Part shown: positions 27,271 through 60,570 of the stretch, piece by piece
How positions within the stretch are numbered: position 1 is the first letter of the stretch
Layout of the letters: each line of letters opens with the position of its first letter
Origin: Bacillota bacterium
GTDB lineage: Bacteria > Bacillota > Clostridia > Lachnospirales > Bianqueaceae
DNA length: 64,000 nucleotides
Assembly (NCBI GenBank): GCA_017620135.1
Contig: JAFZQZ010000027.1
Span: forward strand, 1 to 64,000
Direction of reading: 5' to 3'
Notes under the pieces: model-generated
Told to the model about the DNA's origin: nothing
The model's input: the letters and a program-made list of their open reading frames with translations, nothing else
Database searches by the model: none
Translations under genes and position numbers: made by a program

Positions 27271-28170
27271 ATGGTCAAACAAACGATCGACGGGATCGAA
27301 TACCGGCTGAAAGTGCCGCGGGACCTAACATTTATCAGAAAATATGGTACAGTATTTACTGTGATCGATGAGACCGGTTCCGGATGTATCTGCTTCGGTG
27401 TGGGGCAAAACGATCAACGGTTTTTTATCAAGATCGCAGGCGCCGATACGATCGAAGGAGAAGTTTCGCCGGAAGAGGCGGTCCTTGATCTGAAACGAGC
27501 GGTGGGCCTGTATACGGCGCTGACACATCCGAGCCTGATCCGCCTTGTGGAGCATTATCCTAAGGACGATCTGTATGTGGCTGTTTTCGAATGGGTGGAA
27601 GGCGAAGGACTGTTCGACCACTGGAATTTCGAAAAATATGAGAGGCTGGGGATCCGGTCGCCGAACGAGCGTTTCAAAGCACTCCCGGCAGAAAAGAAGA
27701 TAGCCGCGGCGTTGGATATTCTTTCATTTTTTGAAAATGTCGCGGCAAAAGGATACCGTGCCTGTGATTTCTATGACGGAAGCCTGATCTATGATTTCGA
27801 CCGGGACCGTCTGATGATCTGTGATATCGACCTGTTCCGTCCGGCTCCTGTGATCAATGAGACGGGAGAAGATTACTGGGGGACCAAACGGCTGAAAGCG
27901 CCGGAAGAATATCAGAAAGGCGCGGTGATCGACGAGGCCACCAACGTCTTCACCCTTGGTGCATTATTTTTCGACTTTTTTGGAAAATATACAGAAGATC
28001 AGATCCGGCTAAGATATAAAGAAAATGCCTTTTCTCCGTGCAGACCGGAGCAGTGGACACTCTCCGGGGATGTCTACCGGGTCCTCCTCAAGGCGACGAT
28101 GCCGGACCGGGAAAAACGCTATCAGTCGATCCGCGAATTTGCGGAAGATTTCAGGGCTGCTGTCCACTGA
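27271..28170 (+). CDS. divergent Ser/Thr protein kinase-like protein
   Basis: A 299-residue protein-kinase-fold protein. The ATP-binding Lys is likely in FFIKIAG near 52. The catalytic loop reads ACDFYDGSLIYDF near 168, with the HRD Asp kept but the usual Asn replaced by Ser, and the metal-binding DFG is replaced by DID in ICDIDLF near 188. An APEEYQKG segment near 209 matches the end of the activation segment. Similar proteins occur in many Bacillota (from memory) and may be active atypical kinases. No membrane segment is present. Its pairing with a phosphoesterase gene upstream is suggestive but not proof of a shared pathway. Confidence 0.8.
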   Translation: MVKQTIDGIEYRLKVPRDLTFIRKYGTVFTVIDETGSGCICFGVGQNDQRFFIKIAGADTIEGEVSPEEAVLDLKRAVGLYTALTHPSLIRLVEHYPKDDLYVAVFEWVEGEGLFDHWNFEKYERLGIRSPNERFKALPAEKKIAAALDILSFFENVAAKGYRACDFYDGSLIYDFDRDRLMICDIDLFRPAPVINETGEDYWGTKRLKAPEEYQKGAVIDEATNVFTLGALFFDFFGKYTEDQIRLRYKENAFSPCRPEQWTLSGDVYRVLLKATMPDREKRYQSIREFAEDFRAAVH

Positions 28171-44521: not shown

Positions 44522-44560
44522 AACCGCGGTCAATCCCGAACAGGGATCCCGCGGTTTTTT
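44522..44560 (+). terminator. rho-independent terminator after the ABM gene
   Basis: AACCGCGG pairs with CCGCGGTT, followed by a run of T; the loop contains a smaller ATCCC/GGGAT helix. Confidence 0.88.
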
Positions 44561-44603
44561 CTAGCTTTTCTATGCCGCATTTATGCCGAATGTGGTGTTT
44601 GGC

Positions 44604-44632
44604 TTGTAATTCGCCTGCTTGTGCGATAGAAT
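44604..44632 (+). promoter_or_regulatory. promoter of the kinase-like pair
   Basis: TTGTAA, a 17-base spacer and TAGAAT lie 43 bases before the first kinase-like gene, which has CAAGGAGATAT ahead of its ATG. It follows the terminator, so the pair is an independent transcription unit. Confidence 0.75.
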
Positions 44633-44675: not shown

Positions 44676-46940
44676 ATGCCACAGGAACAAATGCAGGAAC
44701 TCTACAACGAACTGAAAAATACTCAGTCGACCTCGGAATATTACGCTCCGTTTCTTGCGGCTATGGAGACTTTGGATACAGAGATGAAGTCTCTCATGGA
44801 GCCGGATGAGAACGGATGGAAACTGCTGGACCCGGAGAGATTTCGATCCTTCTCCGAAAAATACCGCGACGCCGGTATCAAGCTGGAACAGTATCTGACC
44901 AGAACAGCGGATACGGAGGATCCCGCGGAGCTTCAGACCAGGGAAAAGGCGAACAAGCTGGCGGCGCTCATGGCACAGGACGCCGCAGTTTTTCGTCACT
45001 ATGATCCCCGGAACCCGGACACACAGCGTTCTCTTCCGTCCCTCCTGGAGGAATCCCGTAATCCTGTCGTGGACATTTCCACCGCGAAGATCCAGTCGAT
45101 CGGGGGCGCGCAGAGCAGCCGTATGCCTATGACGATCATCGGTCCGAACGGAGAAGCAATGCCGGGTGTCTTTACAAAGGCAGAAATCTTCGATCCGCTG
45201 GGAAGCTTTGACCGAGCGACGAATCTGGCGGCCAACAGTAAAGGCGTCACACAGCAGGGAGCAGACCTTCTTCGGAACTTCAGCACTGCCTATAAGAATT
45301 ATTACACCGCCAATCCGGACCCGAACAGGCCGGTAGATAACAACCCGAATATGATCAATCAGCTCCTGCTGCAGTCCAGGAGCAATACGGACAGCAGTAC
45401 CAGCTGGACCATGTCCACGGACAAGATCGCGCAGGAGATCGCGAAGGTCAACGGACTGAACGTGGAAGAGGTCAAGACCGCCTGCGGCAAAAAAGCACTG
45501 AGTGACCTTGCCGGCCGGATGAAAAACATGGCCTTCGATACCTATATCAAGGCCTCGGAGATCCAGATGGAGGATAAGACCCGTGTCGATCGCAAGAATA
45601 CGGGCATGAGCATCGTTGCGGACGTGCTGGGGATCTCCCATGTGATCTGCCATTCCGAAGCCATGAAGATCAAAACGGCGGACGGGAAGATCATCGATGG
45701 GACCTTCATGGCGATGGCCAAAGGCGTCGACCCGAACAATCCCGGCGCGGAAGCCAGAAACGCGGGCAAAAAGTCTCTGAAAAACACCGACGGCCGCGCT
45801 CTGGAAGCGATCGCGGATCTGCAGGTCCTGGATTACATCTGCGGCAACGTAGACCGTCACGGCGGCAATCTCTTCTATCAATTTGACGAGGAAACCGGAA
45901 AACTGATCGGCGTTCAGGGGATCGACAACGATTCCTCTCTCGGAACCAGGGTGCCCCAGCTTAAGAATGAACGGGTCCGGAGGTTACCGGTGTGCCATAC
46001 CATGGGCGTCATCAGCAAGAAGACAGCAGACAAGATCATGAATCTGACGCCGGCGGAACTGGCGTTCGCACTTCGGGGAACGGTCGATGAGAAATCCATC
46101 CAGGCATGCGCCAACCGCCTGCGGGTGGTACAGGGAAACATCCAGCACAGCCGTGAAAAACTGGATCCCAATTCCAAAGAGATCAAGTATCCATATCTCC
46201 AGGAACTGACGACAGAAGAATTTGCTACCGCAGATCTTAGCAAGCTGACCGATAAGCGGGTGGACAATCACTTTAAAGAAATATACGATACATTGCCCCG
46301 GGTAGGCGCCAGGGCCAGGGTCGCTGTGGAATCGCTGAAGGCCAAGACCGTCGGTTCCGAGAACCGTGCGACGATCAGCGGCGTGACCGGTCAGGTACTG
46401 AAAGCTGGACAGATGAAAAAGATGCTCAGTGATAAGACGAGCTTCTGGCGGGGATCCTCTTCTCAGAACTATAAGGATATCGAAGAGGCTGTGAAAGAGT
46501 ATGAAGCTTATCAGAAAAAGCTCCTGACACGGATGCAGAACGGCCAGAAGAGTTTCGAAAAGGGCGAGACTACGCCGGAGGCGGTATTTGGTCGCCATGT
46601 GACCTCTTTCGACATGAACCAGATGAATGCCGGACTGAAAAAGATCAAGAACGCGGCTGACAAATACGCGACAGAAAAGCTTGCGGAGCTCGCTGCGAGC
46701 GGCAAAACGCCGGAAGATGATCCATATATCAAGAAAAGGATCGAGCTGGCTCAGGAGATCTCTGCCTACGCGGGAGAACGTCTGCAGCCTTCGAAGGAAG
46801 AGCGTGAGACGGTCGCGGCAAGTGAGCGCCGCGCTGCGGAAGAGATCGTAAGAAAAGAAAACAAACCGGCGCCTGCCAGACAGGAAGTAGTCGAAGACCA
46901 ACAGATCGAAGGAAAGAAAGGGCCGGAAGCCGGCCATTAA
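44676..46940 (+). CDS. PI3/4-kinase-like protein 1
   Basis: A 754-residue soluble protein of no family I can name, with atypical-kinase motifs. After an all-helical region (1-125), a small lobe is suggested by GGAQSSRMPM and GVFTKAEIFD, with Lys168 as the possible ATP-contacting residue. A helix with DRKNTGMSIVADVLGI near 306 resembles the alpha-C region, and FMAMAKGVD near 344-352 a hinge. The catalytic loop reads CGNVDRHGGN (Asp393, Asn398) and the metal site GIDND (Asp417-Asn-Asp419), the order D-R-H-x-x-N then I-D-x-x typical of phosphatidylinositol 3/4-kinases. A long helical, charged tail (470-754) follows. No signal peptide or membrane helix is seen. Lipid or protein substrates are both possible. 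Confidence 0.75.
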   Translation: MPQEQMQELYNELKNTQSTSEYYAPFLAAMETLDTEMKSLMEPDENGWKLLDPERFRSFSEKYRDAGIKLEQYLTRTADTEDPAELQTREKANKLAALMAQDAAVFRHYDPRNPDTQRSLPSLLEESRNPVVDISTAKIQSIGGAQSSRMPMTIIGPNGEAMPGVFTKAEIFDPLGSFDRATNLAANSKGVTQQGADLLRNFSTAYKNYYTANPDPNRPVDNNPNMINQLLLQSRSNTDSSTSWTMSTDKIAQEIAKVNGLNVEEVKTACGKKALSDLAGRMKNMAFDTYIKASEIQMEDKTRVDRKNTGMSIVADVLGISHVICHSEAMKIKTADGKIIDGTFMAMAKGVDPNNPGAEARNAGKKSLKNTDGRALEAIADLQVLDYICGNVDRHGGNLFYQFDEETGKLIGVQGIDNDSSLGTRVPQLKNERVRRLPVCHTMGVISKKTADKIMNLTPAELAFALRGTVDEKSIQACANRLRVVQGNIQHSREKLDPNSKEIKYPYLQELTTEEFATADLSKLTDKRVDNHFKEIYDTLPRVGARARVAVESLKAKTVGSENRATISGVTGQVLKAGQMKKMLSDKTSFWRGSSSQNYKDIEEAVKEYEAYQKKLLTRMQNGQKSFEKGETTPEAVFGRHVTSFDMNQMNAGLKKIKNAADKYATEKLAELAASGKTPEDDPYIKKRIELAQEISAYAGERLQPSKEERETVAASERRAAEEIVRKENKPAPARQEVVEDQQIEGKKGPEAGH

Positions 46941-46958
46941 GCAGAAGGAGAAAACAAC

Positions 46959-49202
46959 ATGCCAGATCCAGTGAGAGATGAATTACTGAAGACTTTAGGC
47001 GAAACCGAGATCAACACGCCGGAGTTTACCAAGTTGAAAAACGATCTTGCCGCGCTGAATGCGGAGATGGATTCTCTGATGCAGGTAGACGAAAACGGCT
47101 GGAAGATGCTGAATCAGGAACGGTATATCAGTCTGATGCGTAAATATACCGCGGTCGGCACCAGTATGGAACAGTTTCTGGAAGCCGCGGAAGGTTCTGA
47201 GGATCCTGCCGTGCAGGCCGGAAGGGAGCTGACACTGAAGGTCAGCGCGATCCTGTCTCAGGATATGAATACCCTTCGCCGGTATAATCCTACGGATGAA
47301 GCCGGGCAAAAGTCCCTGGAGGCGGTCCTTAACGAATCCAGGATCCCGGTCCTCGACCCCGGTCAGGAAAAAACGACCCGGGTAGGCGGACAGCTGTCTT
47401 CGAGGATCCCACTTTCTTTTATCGATTCGAACGGACGCAGAGTTTCCGGCGTATTTACCATGCCCAAATACTTCGATCCGGAAAGCGAGCTGAAGTCTGC
47501 ACAGCAGACAGCCGGCGCCGGGGCTAAGACGCCGGAAGGGAAACAGCTGTTGGAAGGTCTTTACGAGAAATATAAAGAGTATTACCGGAATCGTCCGGAC
47601 AAGGACCATCAGATCACAGGGAACGAAGTGAACAATATCATGCGGTTTTACAAGGATCTTTGTGAGCCGGGCAGCGACGCGGTTTCCGGGCCGCGCGTCC
47701 TCCGGATGATGGCAAGGCTCAACCACAGAAGTGAAGCCTACATCCTGGATAAATGCGGATCCAAAGCCATCAAAACGATGACTAAGGAAACGACAAAGCT
47801 CTACAACAACGGTCTGTTCGTAAACGGCAGCGCGGGGATTCCGGCCAAGGCTCGGATCGACAAACGCAATGCCGCTATGAGCAGCGTAGCGGATCTTCTG
47901 GGCATGCCGAACATCATCGCCCGCTCCCGGACAATGAAGATCCGAACGAAAGACGGGCAGGACGTGGAAGGCGTGTTCATGGAAGAGGCGAAAGGGTTCG
48001 ACGCGAATCATCCCCCGGCCAGCGCTTTGACAATCAATTCAAAATCCATGCAGGGAACCAACGGGCGGGCATTCAGACAGCTGGCGGATATTCAGGCGCT
48101 GGATTATATCTGCGGCAATGTGGACCGTCACGGCGGGAACATGCTCTATACCTTTGACAAGAAAGATAAGCTCATCGGGATCCAGGGAATCGACAACGAC
48201 TGTTCCTTCGGTACGGTGGAAACACTGGAGAAGCCGGTGAACCGTATGGTAGCACCGGTCGATATGCTGGTTATCAGCAAACGCACCGCGAACCGGATCC
48301 TGGCTACGACGCCTGAAATGCTTCGCTTCGCTCTGCGGGGCCAGGTGGAAGAGAAGGCTATTAAGGGAGCGGAGAACCGGCTGATGGTCATGCAGGCCAT
48401 GATCCAGTCCAGCCGGAAGAAGCTGGATCCGAACAGGAAGGATATCCAGAGACCTTATATCCGCGAACTGGACGACAAGGATTTTGCCTCTCTGAAGATG
48501 ACGGATCTGACACATCCTGGTGGCACGTCGGTGCTGAACACTTTTGCCATCGCGAATGCCACAGTGTCCAAGATGCACCTGACGGCTTCCACACAGAACC
48601 GAGGCTTAAGGACGACGCAGATCGGGACCACGGACCGCGGTACCATGGCCGGACTTCAGAACGAAGCCAGGCGGACCGCGCTGATGTCTAAGAAGCTCTC
48701 CGACCGTACAAGCCTGAATTTCACCTCCGGGCGCTATCAGGATATTCAGAAAGCGCTGAAGGATTATTCGGATTTCCAGAAACAGCTGACAGACCGCATG
48801 ACAGCCTGCCGCGAACGGGTAAAGAAGGGCGACATGAGTCCGGACGCCGTTTACGGGCAGTATGTGACGCAGTGGGATCTGGACCAGATGCAGGCAAAAC
48901 TCAAGAAGGTCAAATCGACCGGTGAGGAGTATCTGAATAAAAAGAACGAAGACCTGAACGGCGCGGATCCGTCCCGCTATACCAAGAAGAGAATGGATGC
49001 GGTGCAGGACGTTCTGGACTTCGCGGACAACGCGCTGAAGTTCTCCGAGGAGGAACGAAAGACCGTACAGGAGAATCAGCGGGTCGCGACTGAACAGTTC
49101 GTCAAGCATGAAGTGAAGAAACAGGCCCAGGCGCCGAAAGCGCCGGAAGATCCTCAGATGAAAAACAAGCAGGGCGAAGGTATGGACGGCCCGAAAGTCT
49201 GA
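46959..49202 (+). CDS. PI3/4-kinase-like protein 2 (tandem paralogue)
   Basis: A 747-residue paralogue of the preceding protein, 18 bases downstream with an AGGAGAA site. It aligns from the N-terminus (MDSLMQVDENGWKMLNQER) to the tail. The catalytic loop is CGNVDRHGGN at Asp389 and the metal site is GIDND at 412-414. In the small lobe the residue matching Lys168 of protein 1 is Met (GVFTMPKYFD), with Lys170 two residues on, so nucleotide contacts may differ or one protein may be a partner rather than an active kinase. The alpha-C-like KRNAAMSSVADLLGM and hinge-like EEAKGFD are kept. The helical C-terminal tail is charged and ends QGEGMDGPKV. Confidence 0.75.
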   Translation: MPDPVRDELLKTLGETEINTPEFTKLKNDLAALNAEMDSLMQVDENGWKMLNQERYISLMRKYTAVGTSMEQFLEAAEGSEDPAVQAGRELTLKVSAILSQDMNTLRRYNPTDEAGQKSLEAVLNESRIPVLDPGQEKTTRVGGQLSSRIPLSFIDSNGRRVSGVFTMPKYFDPESELKSAQQTAGAGAKTPEGKQLLEGLYEKYKEYYRNRPDKDHQITGNEVNNIMRFYKDLCEPGSDAVSGPRVLRMMARLNHRSEAYILDKCGSKAIKTMTKETTKLYNNGLFVNGSAGIPAKARIDKRNAAMSSVADLLGMPNIIARSRTMKIRTKDGQDVEGVFMEEAKGFDANHPPASALTINSKSMQGTNGRAFRQLADIQALDYICGNVDRHGGNMLYTFDKKDKLIGIQGIDNDCSFGTVETLEKPVNRMVAPVDMLVISKRTANRILATTPEMLRFALRGQVEEKAIKGAENRLMVMQAMIQSSRKKLDPNRKDIQRPYIRELDDKDFASLKMTDLTHPGGTSVLNTFAIANATVSKMHLTASTQNRGLRTTQIGTTDRGTMAGLQNEARRTALMSKKLSDRTSLNFTSGRYQDIQKALKDYSDFQKQLTDRMTACRERVKKGDMSPDAVYGQYVTQWDLDQMQAKLKKVKSTGEEYLNKKNEDLNGADPSRYTKKRMDAVQDVLDFADNALKFSEEERKTVQENQRVATEQFVKHEVKKQAQAPKAPEDPQMKNKQGEGMDGPKV

Positions 49203-49330: not shown

Positions 49331-50455
49331 ATGAGCGACTACTTAGGGAAAGACACCTTTAAGCTGGGCTTTGGCCTGATGCGCCTGCCCAAAAATCAGG
49401 ACGGAAGCACGGACATTCCTCAGGTCTGCGAGATGGTGGATCAGTTCATCGCCGCGGGCGGTACCTACTTCGATACCGCATATGTCTATGACATGGGCAG
49501 AAGTGAGGAAGCATTCAAAAAAGCTGTCGTGGACCGTTATCCCCGTGACAGATTCACCCTGTGCACCAAGATCAATGCCTGGGAGCAGTGCACGGACGAG
49601 GCCAGCTGCAAGCAGCAGTTCTATACCAGTCTGGAGCGTACCGGCGCGGGATATTTCGACTACTATCTGCTTCATGGTCTGATGCCCAACAATTACACAA
49701 AGTTTGACGACTACCATATCTGGGATTTCGTCAAGGAACAGAGAGACAAAGGTCTGATCCGTCACTGGGGATTTTCCTTCCATGCCAGCCCGGAACTGCT
49801 GGACGAACTGCTGACCAAACATCCGGACGTGGATTTCATTCAGCTTCAGATCAACTATGTGGACTGGGAAGATGAAGGGATCGCCGCGCGTCGCTGCTAC
49901 GAGGTAGCCAGAAAGCACGGCAAACCCATCACAGTCATGGAGCCCATCAAAGGCGGAGCGCTGGCGGATCCTATCCCCTCTGTAAAAGAGATCTTTAAAA
50001 AGGCTGCTCCGGAGCTTTCTCCGGCTAGCTGGGCGATCCGGTATGTGGCCAGTCTGGATGGTATCATCACGGTCCTTTCCGGTATGAGCAATCTGGCGCA
50101 GATGGAAGATAATCTTTCCTACATGAAAGATTTCAAGCCCCTCAGCGATGCGGAACAGCAGGTCATCGAAGAGGCCAAGGCGGCTATTGCCGCGGTCGAC
50201 AGCATCAAGTGTACCGGCTGCCGTTATTGCGTGGAAGGCTGCCCCATGAGCATTCCGATCCCGGATGTTTTCTCTGCCCGGAACCAGCAGCTGATGTACA
50301 ACAATACGACCGGCGCCAAGCGGATGTACGGATGGCGCACCAACGGTAAAGGAAAAGCCAGCGACTGCATCCAGTGTGGTCAGTGTGAAGGCGCGTGCCC
50401 GCAGCACCTGCCGATCATCGAACTCCTGCAGTCCTGCGCCGCGAACCTTGAATAA
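49331..50455 (+). CDS. aldo/keto reductase with two 4Fe-4S clusters (tandem copy 1)
   Basis: A 374-residue reductase of the same class as the enzyme at 15.9 kb. Barrel residues include YFDTAYVYDMG (catalytic Asp and Tyr near 47-52), CTKIN (Lys) and YLLHGLMPNNY (His). The C-terminal ferredoxin part has CTGCRYCVEGCP near 297 and CIQCGQCEGACP near 346. It probably couples ferredoxin or a similar donor to reduction of an unknown carbonyl compound. It has a CAGGAGG site and is followed by a near copy of itself after 22 bases. Confidence 0.9.
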   Translation: MSDYLGKDTFKLGFGLMRLPKNQDGSTDIPQVCEMVDQFIAAGGTYFDTAYVYDMGRSEEAFKKAVVDRYPRDRFTLCTKINAWEQCTDEASCKQQFYTSLERTGAGYFDYYLLHGLMPNNYTKFDDYHIWDFVKEQRDKGLIRHWGFSFHASPELLDELLTKHPDVDFIQLQINYVDWEDEGIAARRCYEVARKHGKPITVMEPIKGGALADPIPSVKEIFKKAAPELSPASWAIRYVASLDGIITVLSGMSNLAQMEDNLSYMKDFKPLSDAEQQVIEEAKAAIAAVDSIKCTGCRYCVEGCPMSIPIPDVFSARNQQLMYNNTTGAKRMYGWRTNGKGKASDCIQCGQCEGACPQHLPIIELLQSCAANLE

Positions 50456-50477
50456 GATCTGAAGACAGGAGGAAAAG

Positions 50478-51602
50478 ATGAGCGATTACTTAGGAAAAGA
50501 CACATTTAAGCTGGGATTCGGTCTCATGCGTCTGCCCAAGAACCCGGACGGCAGTACGGATATTCCGCAGGTCTGTGAAATGGCGGACAAATTCCTTGCC
50601 GCCGGCGGTACCTATTTCGATACTGCCTATGTATATGATGAAGGCCGCAGCGAGGCTGCTTTCAAAGCGGCTGTAGTGGATCGCTATCCCAGAGACAGAT
50701 TTACGATCTGCACGAAGCTTTGTGCCTGGATGCACTGCCATGACGAAGAAAGCGCGAAGCAGCAGTTCTTCACCAGCCTGGAACGTACGGGAGCCGGTTA
50801 CTTCGATTACTATCTGCTTCACGCGCTTCAGCGCAACAACTATCATTACTATGATGATTATCACATCTGGGAATTCCTTCAGGAGCAGAAGGAAAAAGGC
50901 CTGGTCAAACACTGGGGCTTCAGCTTCCATGCGGATGCCGCGCTCCTGGACGAACTGCTTACCAAACACCCGGAAGTGGATTTCGTGCAGCTTCAGATCA
51001 ACTACGCGGACTGGGAGAACCCGGGCGTAGAAAGCCGTAAGTGCTGGGAAATCTGTAAAAAGCACGGCAAACCGGTCACGGTCATGGAGCCGATCAAAGG
51101 CGGTGCTCTGGCGAATCCTATTCCTTCCGTGAAAGCAGTCTTCGATGAAGCGAATAACGGCCTGAGCTACGCCAGCTGGGCGATCCGGTATGTGGCCAGT
51201 ATGGACAACATCATCACGGTCCTGTCCGGTATGAGCAACCTGGCACAGATGGAAGACAACCTTTCCTATATGAAAGACTTCCAGCCCCTGAACGAAGAAG
51301 AACAGGCTGTCATCGCAAAAGCGCAGAAAGCACTCAGCGAAGACAAATCCATTCCCTGTACGGCCTGCCATTACTGCACGGAGGGATGTCCCATGAGCAT
51401 TCCGATTCCCGAGATCTTCGCGGTACGCAACCGTGTTCTGAGCTTCAAACCCTGGGACGGCGGCAAACGCGACTATGTGATCGCTACCACCGGCAAAGGC
51501 AAAGCCAGCGACTGTATCCAGTGTGGTCAGTGCGAAGGCGCGTGCCCGCAGCACCTGCCGATCATCGAACTGCTGGAGCAGTGCAGAGTGATGGAATCAT
51601 AA
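50478..51602 (+). CDS. aldo/keto reductase with two 4Fe-4S clusters (tandem copy 2)
   Basis: A 374-residue paralogue of the preceding gene, same length and nearly the same first 35 residues (MSDYLGKDTFKLGFGLMRLP). Catalytic features are YFDTAYVYDEG, CTKLC (Lys kept) and LLHALQRNNY; cluster motifs are CTACHYCTEGCP and CIQCGQCEGACP. Differences cluster in the substrate-facing loops after the barrel strands, so the copies may have different substrates. A recent tandem duplication is the simplest explanation. A strong terminator follows. Confidence 0.9.
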   Translation: MSDYLGKDTFKLGFGLMRLPKNPDGSTDIPQVCEMADKFLAAGGTYFDTAYVYDEGRSEAAFKAAVVDRYPRDRFTICTKLCAWMHCHDEESAKQQFFTSLERTGAGYFDYYLLHALQRNNYHYYDDYHIWEFLQEQKEKGLVKHWGFSFHADAALLDELLTKHPEVDFVQLQINYADWENPGVESRKCWEICKKHGKPVTVMEPIKGGALANPIPSVKAVFDEANNGLSYASWAIRYVASMDNIITVLSGMSNLAQMEDNLSYMKDFQPLNEEEQAVIAKAQKALSEDKSIPCTACHYCTEGCPMSIPIPEIFAVRNRVLSFKPWDGGKRDYVIATTGKGKASDCIQCGQCEGACPQHLPIIELLEQCRVMES

Positions 51603-60422: not shown

Positions 60423-60493
60423 AGGTGCCAATCAGAATCGAACTGATGATAGAGGTGTTGCAGACCTTTGCCTTACCGCTTGGCTATGGCACC
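60423..60493 (-). tRNA. tRNA-Cys (GCA)
   Basis: A 71-base cloverleaf on the minus strand: acceptor GGTGCCA pairing with TGGCACC, a D arm GCCAAGCGGTAAGGC, an anticodon loop CTGCAAC giving anticodon GCA, and a T arm with GTTCGATTC. The discriminator base is T, as is usual for tRNA-Cys. No CCA is encoded. It is transcribed after tRNA-Glu, 5 bases apart. Confidence 0.93.
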
Positions 60494-60498
60494 AAAAG

Positions 60499-60570
60499 TG
60501 ACCCCTGCGGGAATTGAACCCACGTTACCGCCGTGAAAGGGCGATGTCTTAACCTCTTGACCAAGGGGCC
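60499..60570 (-). tRNA. tRNA-Glu (TTC)
   Basis: A 72-base cloverleaf on the minus strand: acceptor GGCCCCT pairing with AGGGGTC, a TGGTCAAGAGGTTAAGACA D arm, an anticodon loop CTTTCAC giving TTC, and a T arm with GGTTCAATTCC. No CCA is encoded. It is the first gene of the two-tRNA transcript. Confidence 0.94.

What the first reader, a model, noticed from the sequence alone, without database searches (positions are those of the whole stretch)
44676..49202. Tandem pair of large soluble proteins with PI3/4-kinase-like catalytic motifs
Both proteins carry CGNVDRHGGN followed about 20 residues later by GIDND, the order of the catalytic and metal loops of phosphatidylinositol 3/4-kinases and related atypical kinases, inside 750-residue proteins with long helical flanks and no signal peptide. 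Their Lys positions in the small lobe differ (Lys168 against Met/Lys170), so the pair may be an active kinase with a divergent partner. They form an isolated two-gene operon with a strong promoter. I know of no described bacterial system of this kind; a new signalling, effector or defence kinase system is a fair hypothesis.
Basis: partly seen in the sequence, partly recalled or inferred. Interest (0 to 1): 0.72.

Follow-up and report, generated by a model that had tools for sequence, protein, structure and literature searches.

The report
Paired Fam20/PI4K-like bacterial kinases
Two neighbouring genes in a bacterium whose closest sequenced relative comes from a goat's stomach encode large soluble proteins of an uncharacterised family of unusual kinases, which seem to have moved a key ATP-holding residue to a new place and often keep working and broken kinase copies side by side.

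Summary
KinA (44676-46940, 754 aa) and KinB (46959-49202, 747 aa) are real tandem paralogues (about 38% identical) with DRHGGN and IDND loops that are invariant across the family. AlphaFold models of both match two-lobed PI4K-II, Fam20 and CtkA kinases (Z 12.6-15). By sequence profile the nearest solved relatives are Fam20C/Fam20A (E about 1e-8 to 1e-7), ahead of PI4K-II (6e-4). Neither protein passes the Fam20 family cut-off, so this is a separate family in that branch.

Three additions. Both proteins have Thr in the canonical beta3-Lys column and a conserved beta2 Arg (R149). Among intact relatives, 23 of 23 with the beta2 Arg have Thr there, while 9 without it keep Lys/Arg: a WNK-like relocation. 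(2) Kinase/pseudokinase pairing recurs, in two-domain proteins where different domains have decayed and in a conserved 446-aa pseudokinase of the same genome. (3) A sister clade sits in operons with GNAT acetyltransferases and giant proteins, one ending in a toxin-like domain.

Best reading: cytosolic, probably Ser/Thr protein kinases acting as a pair. Substrate unknown. Defence or lipid-kinase roles have little support.

The parts
44676..46940 (+). KinA, 754-aa atypical kinase with intact catalytic and metal loops
   Evidence: ORF; Pfam; model; fold comparison
46959..49202 (+). KinB, 747-aa paralogue with intact catalytic and metal loops
   Evidence: ORF; 37-38% identity to KinA; model; fold comparison
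44676..45059 (+). KinA N-terminal helical domain, residues 1-128; shared by ten full-length relatives
   Evidence: model; profile search
45066..45179 (+). KinA small lobe beta1-beta3, residues 131-168, with beta2 Arg149 (45120-45122), beta3 Thr167 (45174-45176) and the non-conserved Lys168 (45177-45179)
45195..45560 (+). KinA helical insertion between beta3 and helix C, residues 174-295
   Evidence: model; profile; absent from the 446-aa pseudokinase
45588..45626 (+). KinA helix C, residues 305-317 (family pattern D-x-R-N-x-A-M-S)
45852..45869 (+). KinA catalytic loop DRHGGN, residues 393-398
45921..45932 (+). KinA metal loop IDND, residues 416-419
46173..46865 (+). KinA C-terminal helical domain, about residues 500-730; the 446-aa pseudokinase keeps it
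47403..47405 (+). KinB beta2 Arg149 codon
47457..47468 (+). KinB beta3 Thr167-Met168-Pro169-Lys170
48123..48140 (+). KinB catalytic loop DRHGGN, residues 389-394
48189..48200 (+). KinB metal loop IDND, residues 411-414
44522..44561 (+). Hairpin followed by a T-run, probable terminator of the upstream unit
   Evidence: read directly from the sequence
44604..44632 (+). Weak sigma-70-like site upstream of KinA (9 of 12); not better than chance expectation

Best explanation
KinA and KinB are paralogous cytosolic atypical kinases of a previously uncharacterised family found mainly in two related bacterial families (same order). They use the PI4K-II/Fam20/HipA-type phosphotransfer machinery: D393 as catalytic base, N398 and D417/D419 for metal binding. 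In the KinA clade the basic residue that anchors the ATP phosphates appears to have moved from beta3 (Lys, kept in the sister clade) to beta2 (Arg149), as a lysine did in WNK kinases. The likeliest activity is ATP-dependent phosphorylation of proteins on Ser/Thr. The two products probably work together as homo- or heterodimers through the helical domains, comparable to Fam20C with its pseudokinase activator Fam20A. Shown computationally: fold, active-site conservation, the Arg/Lys exchange, purifying selection, recurrent kinase/pseudokinase pairing. Inferred: catalytic activity, protein substrate, pairing of KinA with KinB, the role of Arg149.
For: Models pLDDT 83 each (pTM 0.77 and 0.63). Fold matches: PI4K-IIbeta Z 14.2/15.0, Fam20C and Fam20B-type 13.0/13.9, CtkA 12.6/14.1, CotH 10.0/11.9, HipA 10.8/10.7; in the KinA list the best unrelated helical-bundle match is Z 9.9, in the KinB list 10.3. 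Profile of 32 cores: Fam20C 3e-8, Fam20A 1.4e-7, PI4K-II 6e-4, CtkA 0.11. Catalytic and metal residues are invariant in 34/34 intact rows. Beta2 Arg with beta3 Thr 23/23, against beta3 Lys/Arg without beta2 Arg 9/9; the column pairing was reproduced by HMM-HMM alignment. dN/dS about 0.16-0.18 for KinA against the G006 orthologue. Pairing: fused two-domain proteins fall into parallel d1 and d2 clades, with d1 degenerate in L110 and L023, d2 degenerate in L116, both intact in L114; the 446-aa pseudokinase is 95% identical and in conserved gene order between two species. WNK precedent: PMC4718504. Fam20A/C precedent: PMC5865150.
Against: No biochemical data. KinB is absent from the matching locus in a sister species that keeps KinA (G006), so KinB is not obligatory there, although that KinA copy also carries a one-base deletion in the assembly. 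The Arg/Lys exchange may be a single evolutionary event, so the Fisher value (1e-6) overstates independence. A protein substrate is inferred only from Fam20, CtkA and HipA kinship; PKL-fold enzymes can also AMPylate or glutamylate.
Confidence: 0.5

Rival explanations
1. They are effector kinases of a polymorphic-toxin-like or host/competitor-directed repertoire, released or delivered into other cells, where they phosphorylate targets.
For: Multiple diverging paralogues per genome. The sister clade lies in operons with GNATs and giant proteins, one with a C-terminal Ntox11 domain and one with an ABC1 kinase domain. Closest fold relatives include the secreted CtkA and the effector MavQ. The KinB N-terminal helices resemble the helical N-terminal part of a clostridial glucosylating toxin domain (Z 9.2, 86 residues).
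Against: No signal peptide, membrane segment or secretion gene nearby; the KinA clade is not in such operons; a Z of 9 for helical bundles can be a common arrangement; no immunity-like partner gene.
Confidence: 0.2
2. They are lipid or inositol kinases like PI4K-II.
For: PI4K-II is the top fold match (Z 14.2/15.0); PF00454 is the best Pfam match.
Against: Sequence profile favours Fam20 by about four orders of magnitude; the PI4K-II catalytic Lys column is Thr; most Clostridia are not known to make phosphoinositides (general knowledge).
Confidence: 0.1
3. They are anti-phage defence kinases, similar to the PADLOC candidate PDC-M03A or to HipA-type toxins.
For: PDC-M03A models match KinA (1.6e-4) and 13 of 32 family cores at E <= 0.01.
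Against: The KinA match covers only the catalytic/metal loop region; KinB has no match; neighbours are aldo/keto reductases, flavodoxins, a LigT-like phosphoesterase and an ABC transporter, not defence genes; no HipA_C match for KinA or KinB; no relatives found in the phage records searched.
Confidence: 0.08
4. The fold is a kinase fold but the chemistry is another transfer, such as AMPylation or polyglutamylation, as in SelO or SidJ.
For: PKL-fold proteins can have these activities (PMC10870513, abstract); the altered small lobe (Thr at the beta3 Lys column) is unusual.
Against: DRHxxN and IDND are in normal kinase order and invariant, unlike SelO and SidJ (general knowledge).
Confidence: 0.1

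Closest known systems
Fam20 secretory-pathway kinases (Fam20C Ser/Thr kinase, Fam20B xylose kinase, Fam20A pseudokinase)
   Same: GNxDRH catalytic loop, DN..FG metal loop, best sequence-profile match in the PDB, fold Z about 12-14, active/pseudokinase pairing as a theme
   Different: No signal peptide, Pfam Fam20C cut-off not reached, about 120-residue helical insertion between beta3 and helix C, large N- and C-terminal helical domains, Thr instead of Lys in beta3 with a conserved Arg in beta2
Type II phosphatidylinositol 4-kinases (PI4K-II alpha/beta)
   Same: Top fold match, Z 14.2/15.0; Pfam PF00454 match around the cut-off
   Different: GVF-K-P beta3 Lys replaced by GVF-T; weaker sequence profile match (6e-4); no palmitoylation-type motif region examined
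CtkA of Helicobacter pylori and HipA/HipT kinases
   Same: Bacterial atypical Ser/Thr kinases of the same branch; CtkA Z 12.6/14.1, HipA Z 10.8/10.7
   Different: No HipB-like partner, no HipA_C Pfam match for KinA or KinB, twice the size
WNK kinases
   Same: Basic ATP-anchoring residue moved from beta3 to beta2 (PMC4718504)
   Different: Arg rather than Lys; unrelated kinase branch; the role here is inferred
PADLOC candidate PDC-M03A
   Same: Weak match over the catalytic/metal loop stretch
   Different: No match over the rest, no match for full-length KinB, no defence-type neighbours

Membership tests
PI3_PI4_kinase (PF00454) | Curated Pfam score cut-off 27.1 | tested here: inconclusive
   KinA 27.1 full length and 29.2 core; KinB 24.8
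PI3_PI4_kinase (PF00454) | Two-lobed PI kinase fold | tested here: met
   PI4K-II Z 13-15 over about 230 residues
PI3_PI4_kinase (PF00454) | Lys in the beta3 ATP-anchoring column | tested here: not met
   Thr167 in both proteins; column pairing checked by two alignments
PI3_PI4_kinase (PF00454) | Phosphoinositide kinase activity | not testable with these tools
   needs an assay
Fam20 (PF06702) | Curated Pfam score cut-off 26.8 | tested here: not met
   18.3 and 17.9 full length, KinA core 21.6
Fam20 (PF06702) | GNxDRH and DN..FG active-site motifs | tested here: met
   alignment to Fam20A/C; DN 31/34 or more and FG 29-31/34 in the family
Fam20 (PF06702) | Secretory signal | tested here: not met
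   no hydrophobic N-terminal stretch, hydropathy only
HipA toxin family | HipA_C domain match | tested here: not met
   absent for KinA and KinB at E up to 10; 2 of 32 relatives match weakly
HipA toxin family | HipB-like antitoxin gene beside it | tested here: not met
   neighbours are an ABM-domain protein and aldo/keto reductases
PDC-M03 defence candidate | Full-length match of subunit A model | tested here: not met
   KinA matches only over model positions 126-178 of 280
PDC-M03 defence candidate | Phage protection | not testable with these tools
   needs phage challenge in a laboratory strain
WNK-like relocation of the ATP-anchoring basic residue | Basic residue in beta2 with loss of the beta3 Lys | tested here: met
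   23/23 against 9/9 reciprocal pattern, reproduced by HMM-HMM alignment
WNK-like relocation of the ATP-anchoring basic residue | The relocated residue contacts ATP phosphates | not testable with these tools
   model coordinates and ligand models not available

The most novel reading that the evidence does not exclude
A bacterial kinase family of the Fam20/PI4K branch that independently moved its ATP-anchoring basic residue from beta3 Lys to beta2 Arg, and in which kinase/pseudokinase pairs (fused, tandem or unlinked) act as an intracellular allosteric signalling module, with a sister clade built into GNAT/giant-protein effector operons.
Probability: 0.3. Interest if true: 0.8.

Novelty: new variant of a known kind. 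Interest (0 to 1): 0.6.

Why it matters
If active, this is an untested bacterial branch of the Fam20/PI4K-II group. It offers a second, independent case of the WNK-type solution to losing the beta3 lysine, with both states preserved in sister clades so that the swap can be tested by mutation. It also offers two-domain proteins in which different halves have become pseudokinases, a natural experiment on why kinases keep dead partners.

Tried and rejected
Single-sequence pattern scans of genome contigs and viral contigs found one near-identical orthologue and no viral relative; phage and plasmid tblastn found nothing beyond one short plasmid match to an annotated PI4-kinase. BFVD fold search gave only weak hits, best a haloviral PI3K/PI4K-domain protein at E 4e-3. 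Plain Foldseek against the PDB gave one good hit, PI4K-IIbeta at 9e-5. Promoter strength: rejected as evidence. Lys168/Met168 as active/inactive marker: rejected. HipA toxin-antitoxin: rejected. A link with aldo/keto reductases (three kinase loci have one within about 5 kb; 21 in 3.0 Mb of the genome) was considered but left as possible chance, since orthologous loci lack it. The placement of the degenerate G045 domain 1 in the tree is unreliable (very long branch; 14.6 bits). PDC-M03 literature: none held.

Full report
OBSERVATION. Both genes are real and at the stated coordinates. KinA and KinB align over their whole length at 37-38% identity. The catalytic loop CGNVDRHGGN and the metal loop GIDND are exact in both. 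The KinA orthologue in a sister genome (G006, the goat-omasum MAG RGIG2931) is 91-96% identical with dN/dS of about 0.16-0.18, so the protein is under purifying selection. That copy carries a one-base deletion, which may be recent decay or an assembly error.

FOLD. AlphaFold models built from window and relative sequences are good (KinA pLDDT 82.9, pTM 0.77; KinB 83.0, 0.63). The order in KinA is: N-terminal helical domain (1-128), beta1-beta3 (131-168), a helical insertion (174-295), helix C (305-317), beta4-beta5 (327-346), helix E (374-389), catalytic and metal loops, and a C-terminal helical domain (about 500-730). Structural comparison gives PI4K-II (Z 14.2 for KinA, 15.0 for KinB), Fam20 (13.0, 13.9), CtkA (12.6, 14.1), CotH (10.0, 11.9), HipA (10.8, 10.7) and actin-fragmin kinase (9.1, 9.2). 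In the KinA list the best unrelated helical-bundle match is Z 9.9; in the KinB list it is 10.3.

FAMILY. Sequence libraries give only weak names: PF00454 around its cut-off, Fam20C below its cut-off, no NCBIfam family, PADLOC PDC-M03A over a short stretch of KinA. A profile of 32 family cores finds Fam20C at 3e-8, Fam20A at 1.4e-7, PI4K-II at 6e-4 and CtkA at 0.11 in the PDB; of the 32 cores, 24 match Fam20C and 22 match PI3_PI4_kinase weakly. The family is sparse: 6 of 391 genomes of the class with a first profile, and 26 of 250 genomes of one related family with a second, of which about 15 are strong. Several genomes hold multiple copies; the window's own genome has four: KinA, KinB, an 833-aa paralogue and a 446-aa pseudokinase.

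ACTIVE SITE. Aligning the small lobes of 34 relatives with an intact DRHxxN loop shows that this column is free to vary. The column that holds the catalytic Lys in PI4K-II (GVFKP, general knowledge) is Thr167 in both proteins. Every one of the 23 sequences with an Arg at the start of beta2 (Arg149, in SSRxP) has Thr in that beta3 column, whereas the 9 sequences with Lys or Arg in beta3 all lack the beta2 Arg. A separate HMM-HMM alignment of the two groups gives the same column pairing. One lineage has therefore exchanged the beta3 basic residue for a beta2 Arg. WNK1 does the same with a beta2 lysine (PMC4718504). The rows are related, so this may be one event; and the position of Arg149 relative to ATP is inferred, not seen.

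PAIRS. A tree of kinase cores separates a KinA-type clade from a second clade (support 94/79). In the KinA-type clade, four two-domain proteins fall into parallel first-domain and second-domain groups, which points to one ancestral fusion. The first domain is degenerate in L110 and L023, the second in L116, and both are intact in L114. The 446-aa pseudokinase of the window's genome groups with KinA and KinB, lacks the N-terminal domain and the insertion, keeps the C-terminal domain, and is 95% identical in conserved gene order in another species. Retention of dead copies beside live ones recalls Fam20A/Fam20C, where the pseudokinase activates the kinase by dimerising (PMC5865150). KinA and KinB themselves both look competent. 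KinB is missing from the corresponding locus of G006, so any KinA/KinB partnership is not universal.

CONTEXT. KinA and KinB form a plausible two-gene unit after a terminator, with no strong promoter by consensus. Neighbours are ordinary: flavodoxins, a LigT-like phosphoesterase, an ABM-domain protein, aldo/keto reductases and an ABC transporter. No conserved partner gene was found for the KinA clade. The second clade differs: in six loci (L065, L104, L121, L067, L068 and the G045 locus L071/L024) the kinase-related genes lie beside GNAT acetyltransferases, sometimes alternating with giant proteins, one of which ends in an Ntox11 domain (3.5e-17) and another of which carries an ABC1 kinase domain (4.9e-17). 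That keeps an effector role open for the wider family, but nothing ties KinA or KinB to export.

CONCLUSION. Kinase fold: about 0.97. Catalytically competent transferase: about 0.85. Protein Ser/Thr kinase: about 0.5. Functional pairing of KinA with KinB or the pseudokinase: about 0.35. These are judgements, not computed values. The family is new in the sense that no library names it; it is a variant of a known kind of enzyme, not a new kind. The sharpest testable claim is the beta2-Arg/beta3-Thr exchange.

Noticed in passing
L104 6232-19190 (G863); L065 1049-18969 (G275); L121 612-10572 (G949); L071 and L024 (G045); L067 8006-12590; L068 7153-12189: A sister clade of these kinases lies in operons that alternate giant proteins (up to 2843 aa) with GNAT acetyltransferases; one giant protein ends in an Ntox11 domain, another carries an ABC1 kinase domain.
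   Followed up: partly
L110 8574-12497, L023 13931-17214, L116 3335-7057, L114 4626-8609: Fused double-kinase proteins in which different halves have lost the catalytic residues in different lineages.
   Followed up: partly
L017 12404-13744 and L025 4681-6021: A 446-aa pseudokinase of the same family (ERSSSD/GKTGE in place of DRHGGN/GIDND), 95% identical and in conserved gene order in two species.
   Followed up: partly
window 27271-28170; L016 8894-9805: A Pkinase-like gene (PF00069 at 1.6e-4) lies directly upstream of KinA in G006 but 16.5 kb upstream in the window; the stretches 28.2-44.6 kb and 46.96-53.58 kb (KinB included) are absent there.
   Followed up: partly
L066 9437-10693: A degenerate relative of the kinase core sits inside a run of glycosyltransferase-like, surface-polysaccharide-type genes.
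   Followed up: no
window 49331-51602: Two tandem aldo/keto reductases with 4Fe-4S domains, 74% identical; aldo/keto reductases also lie within about 5 kb of two other kinase loci (L018, L019), possibly by chance.
   Followed up: partly
KinB residues 2-111, window 46962-47291: In the structural comparison the N-terminal helices match the helical N-terminal part of a clostridial glucosylating toxin domain (Z 9.2, 86 residues); for helical bundles this may be only a common arrangement.
   Followed up: no
window 60423-60570: Two tRNA genes on the minus strand.
   Followed up: no
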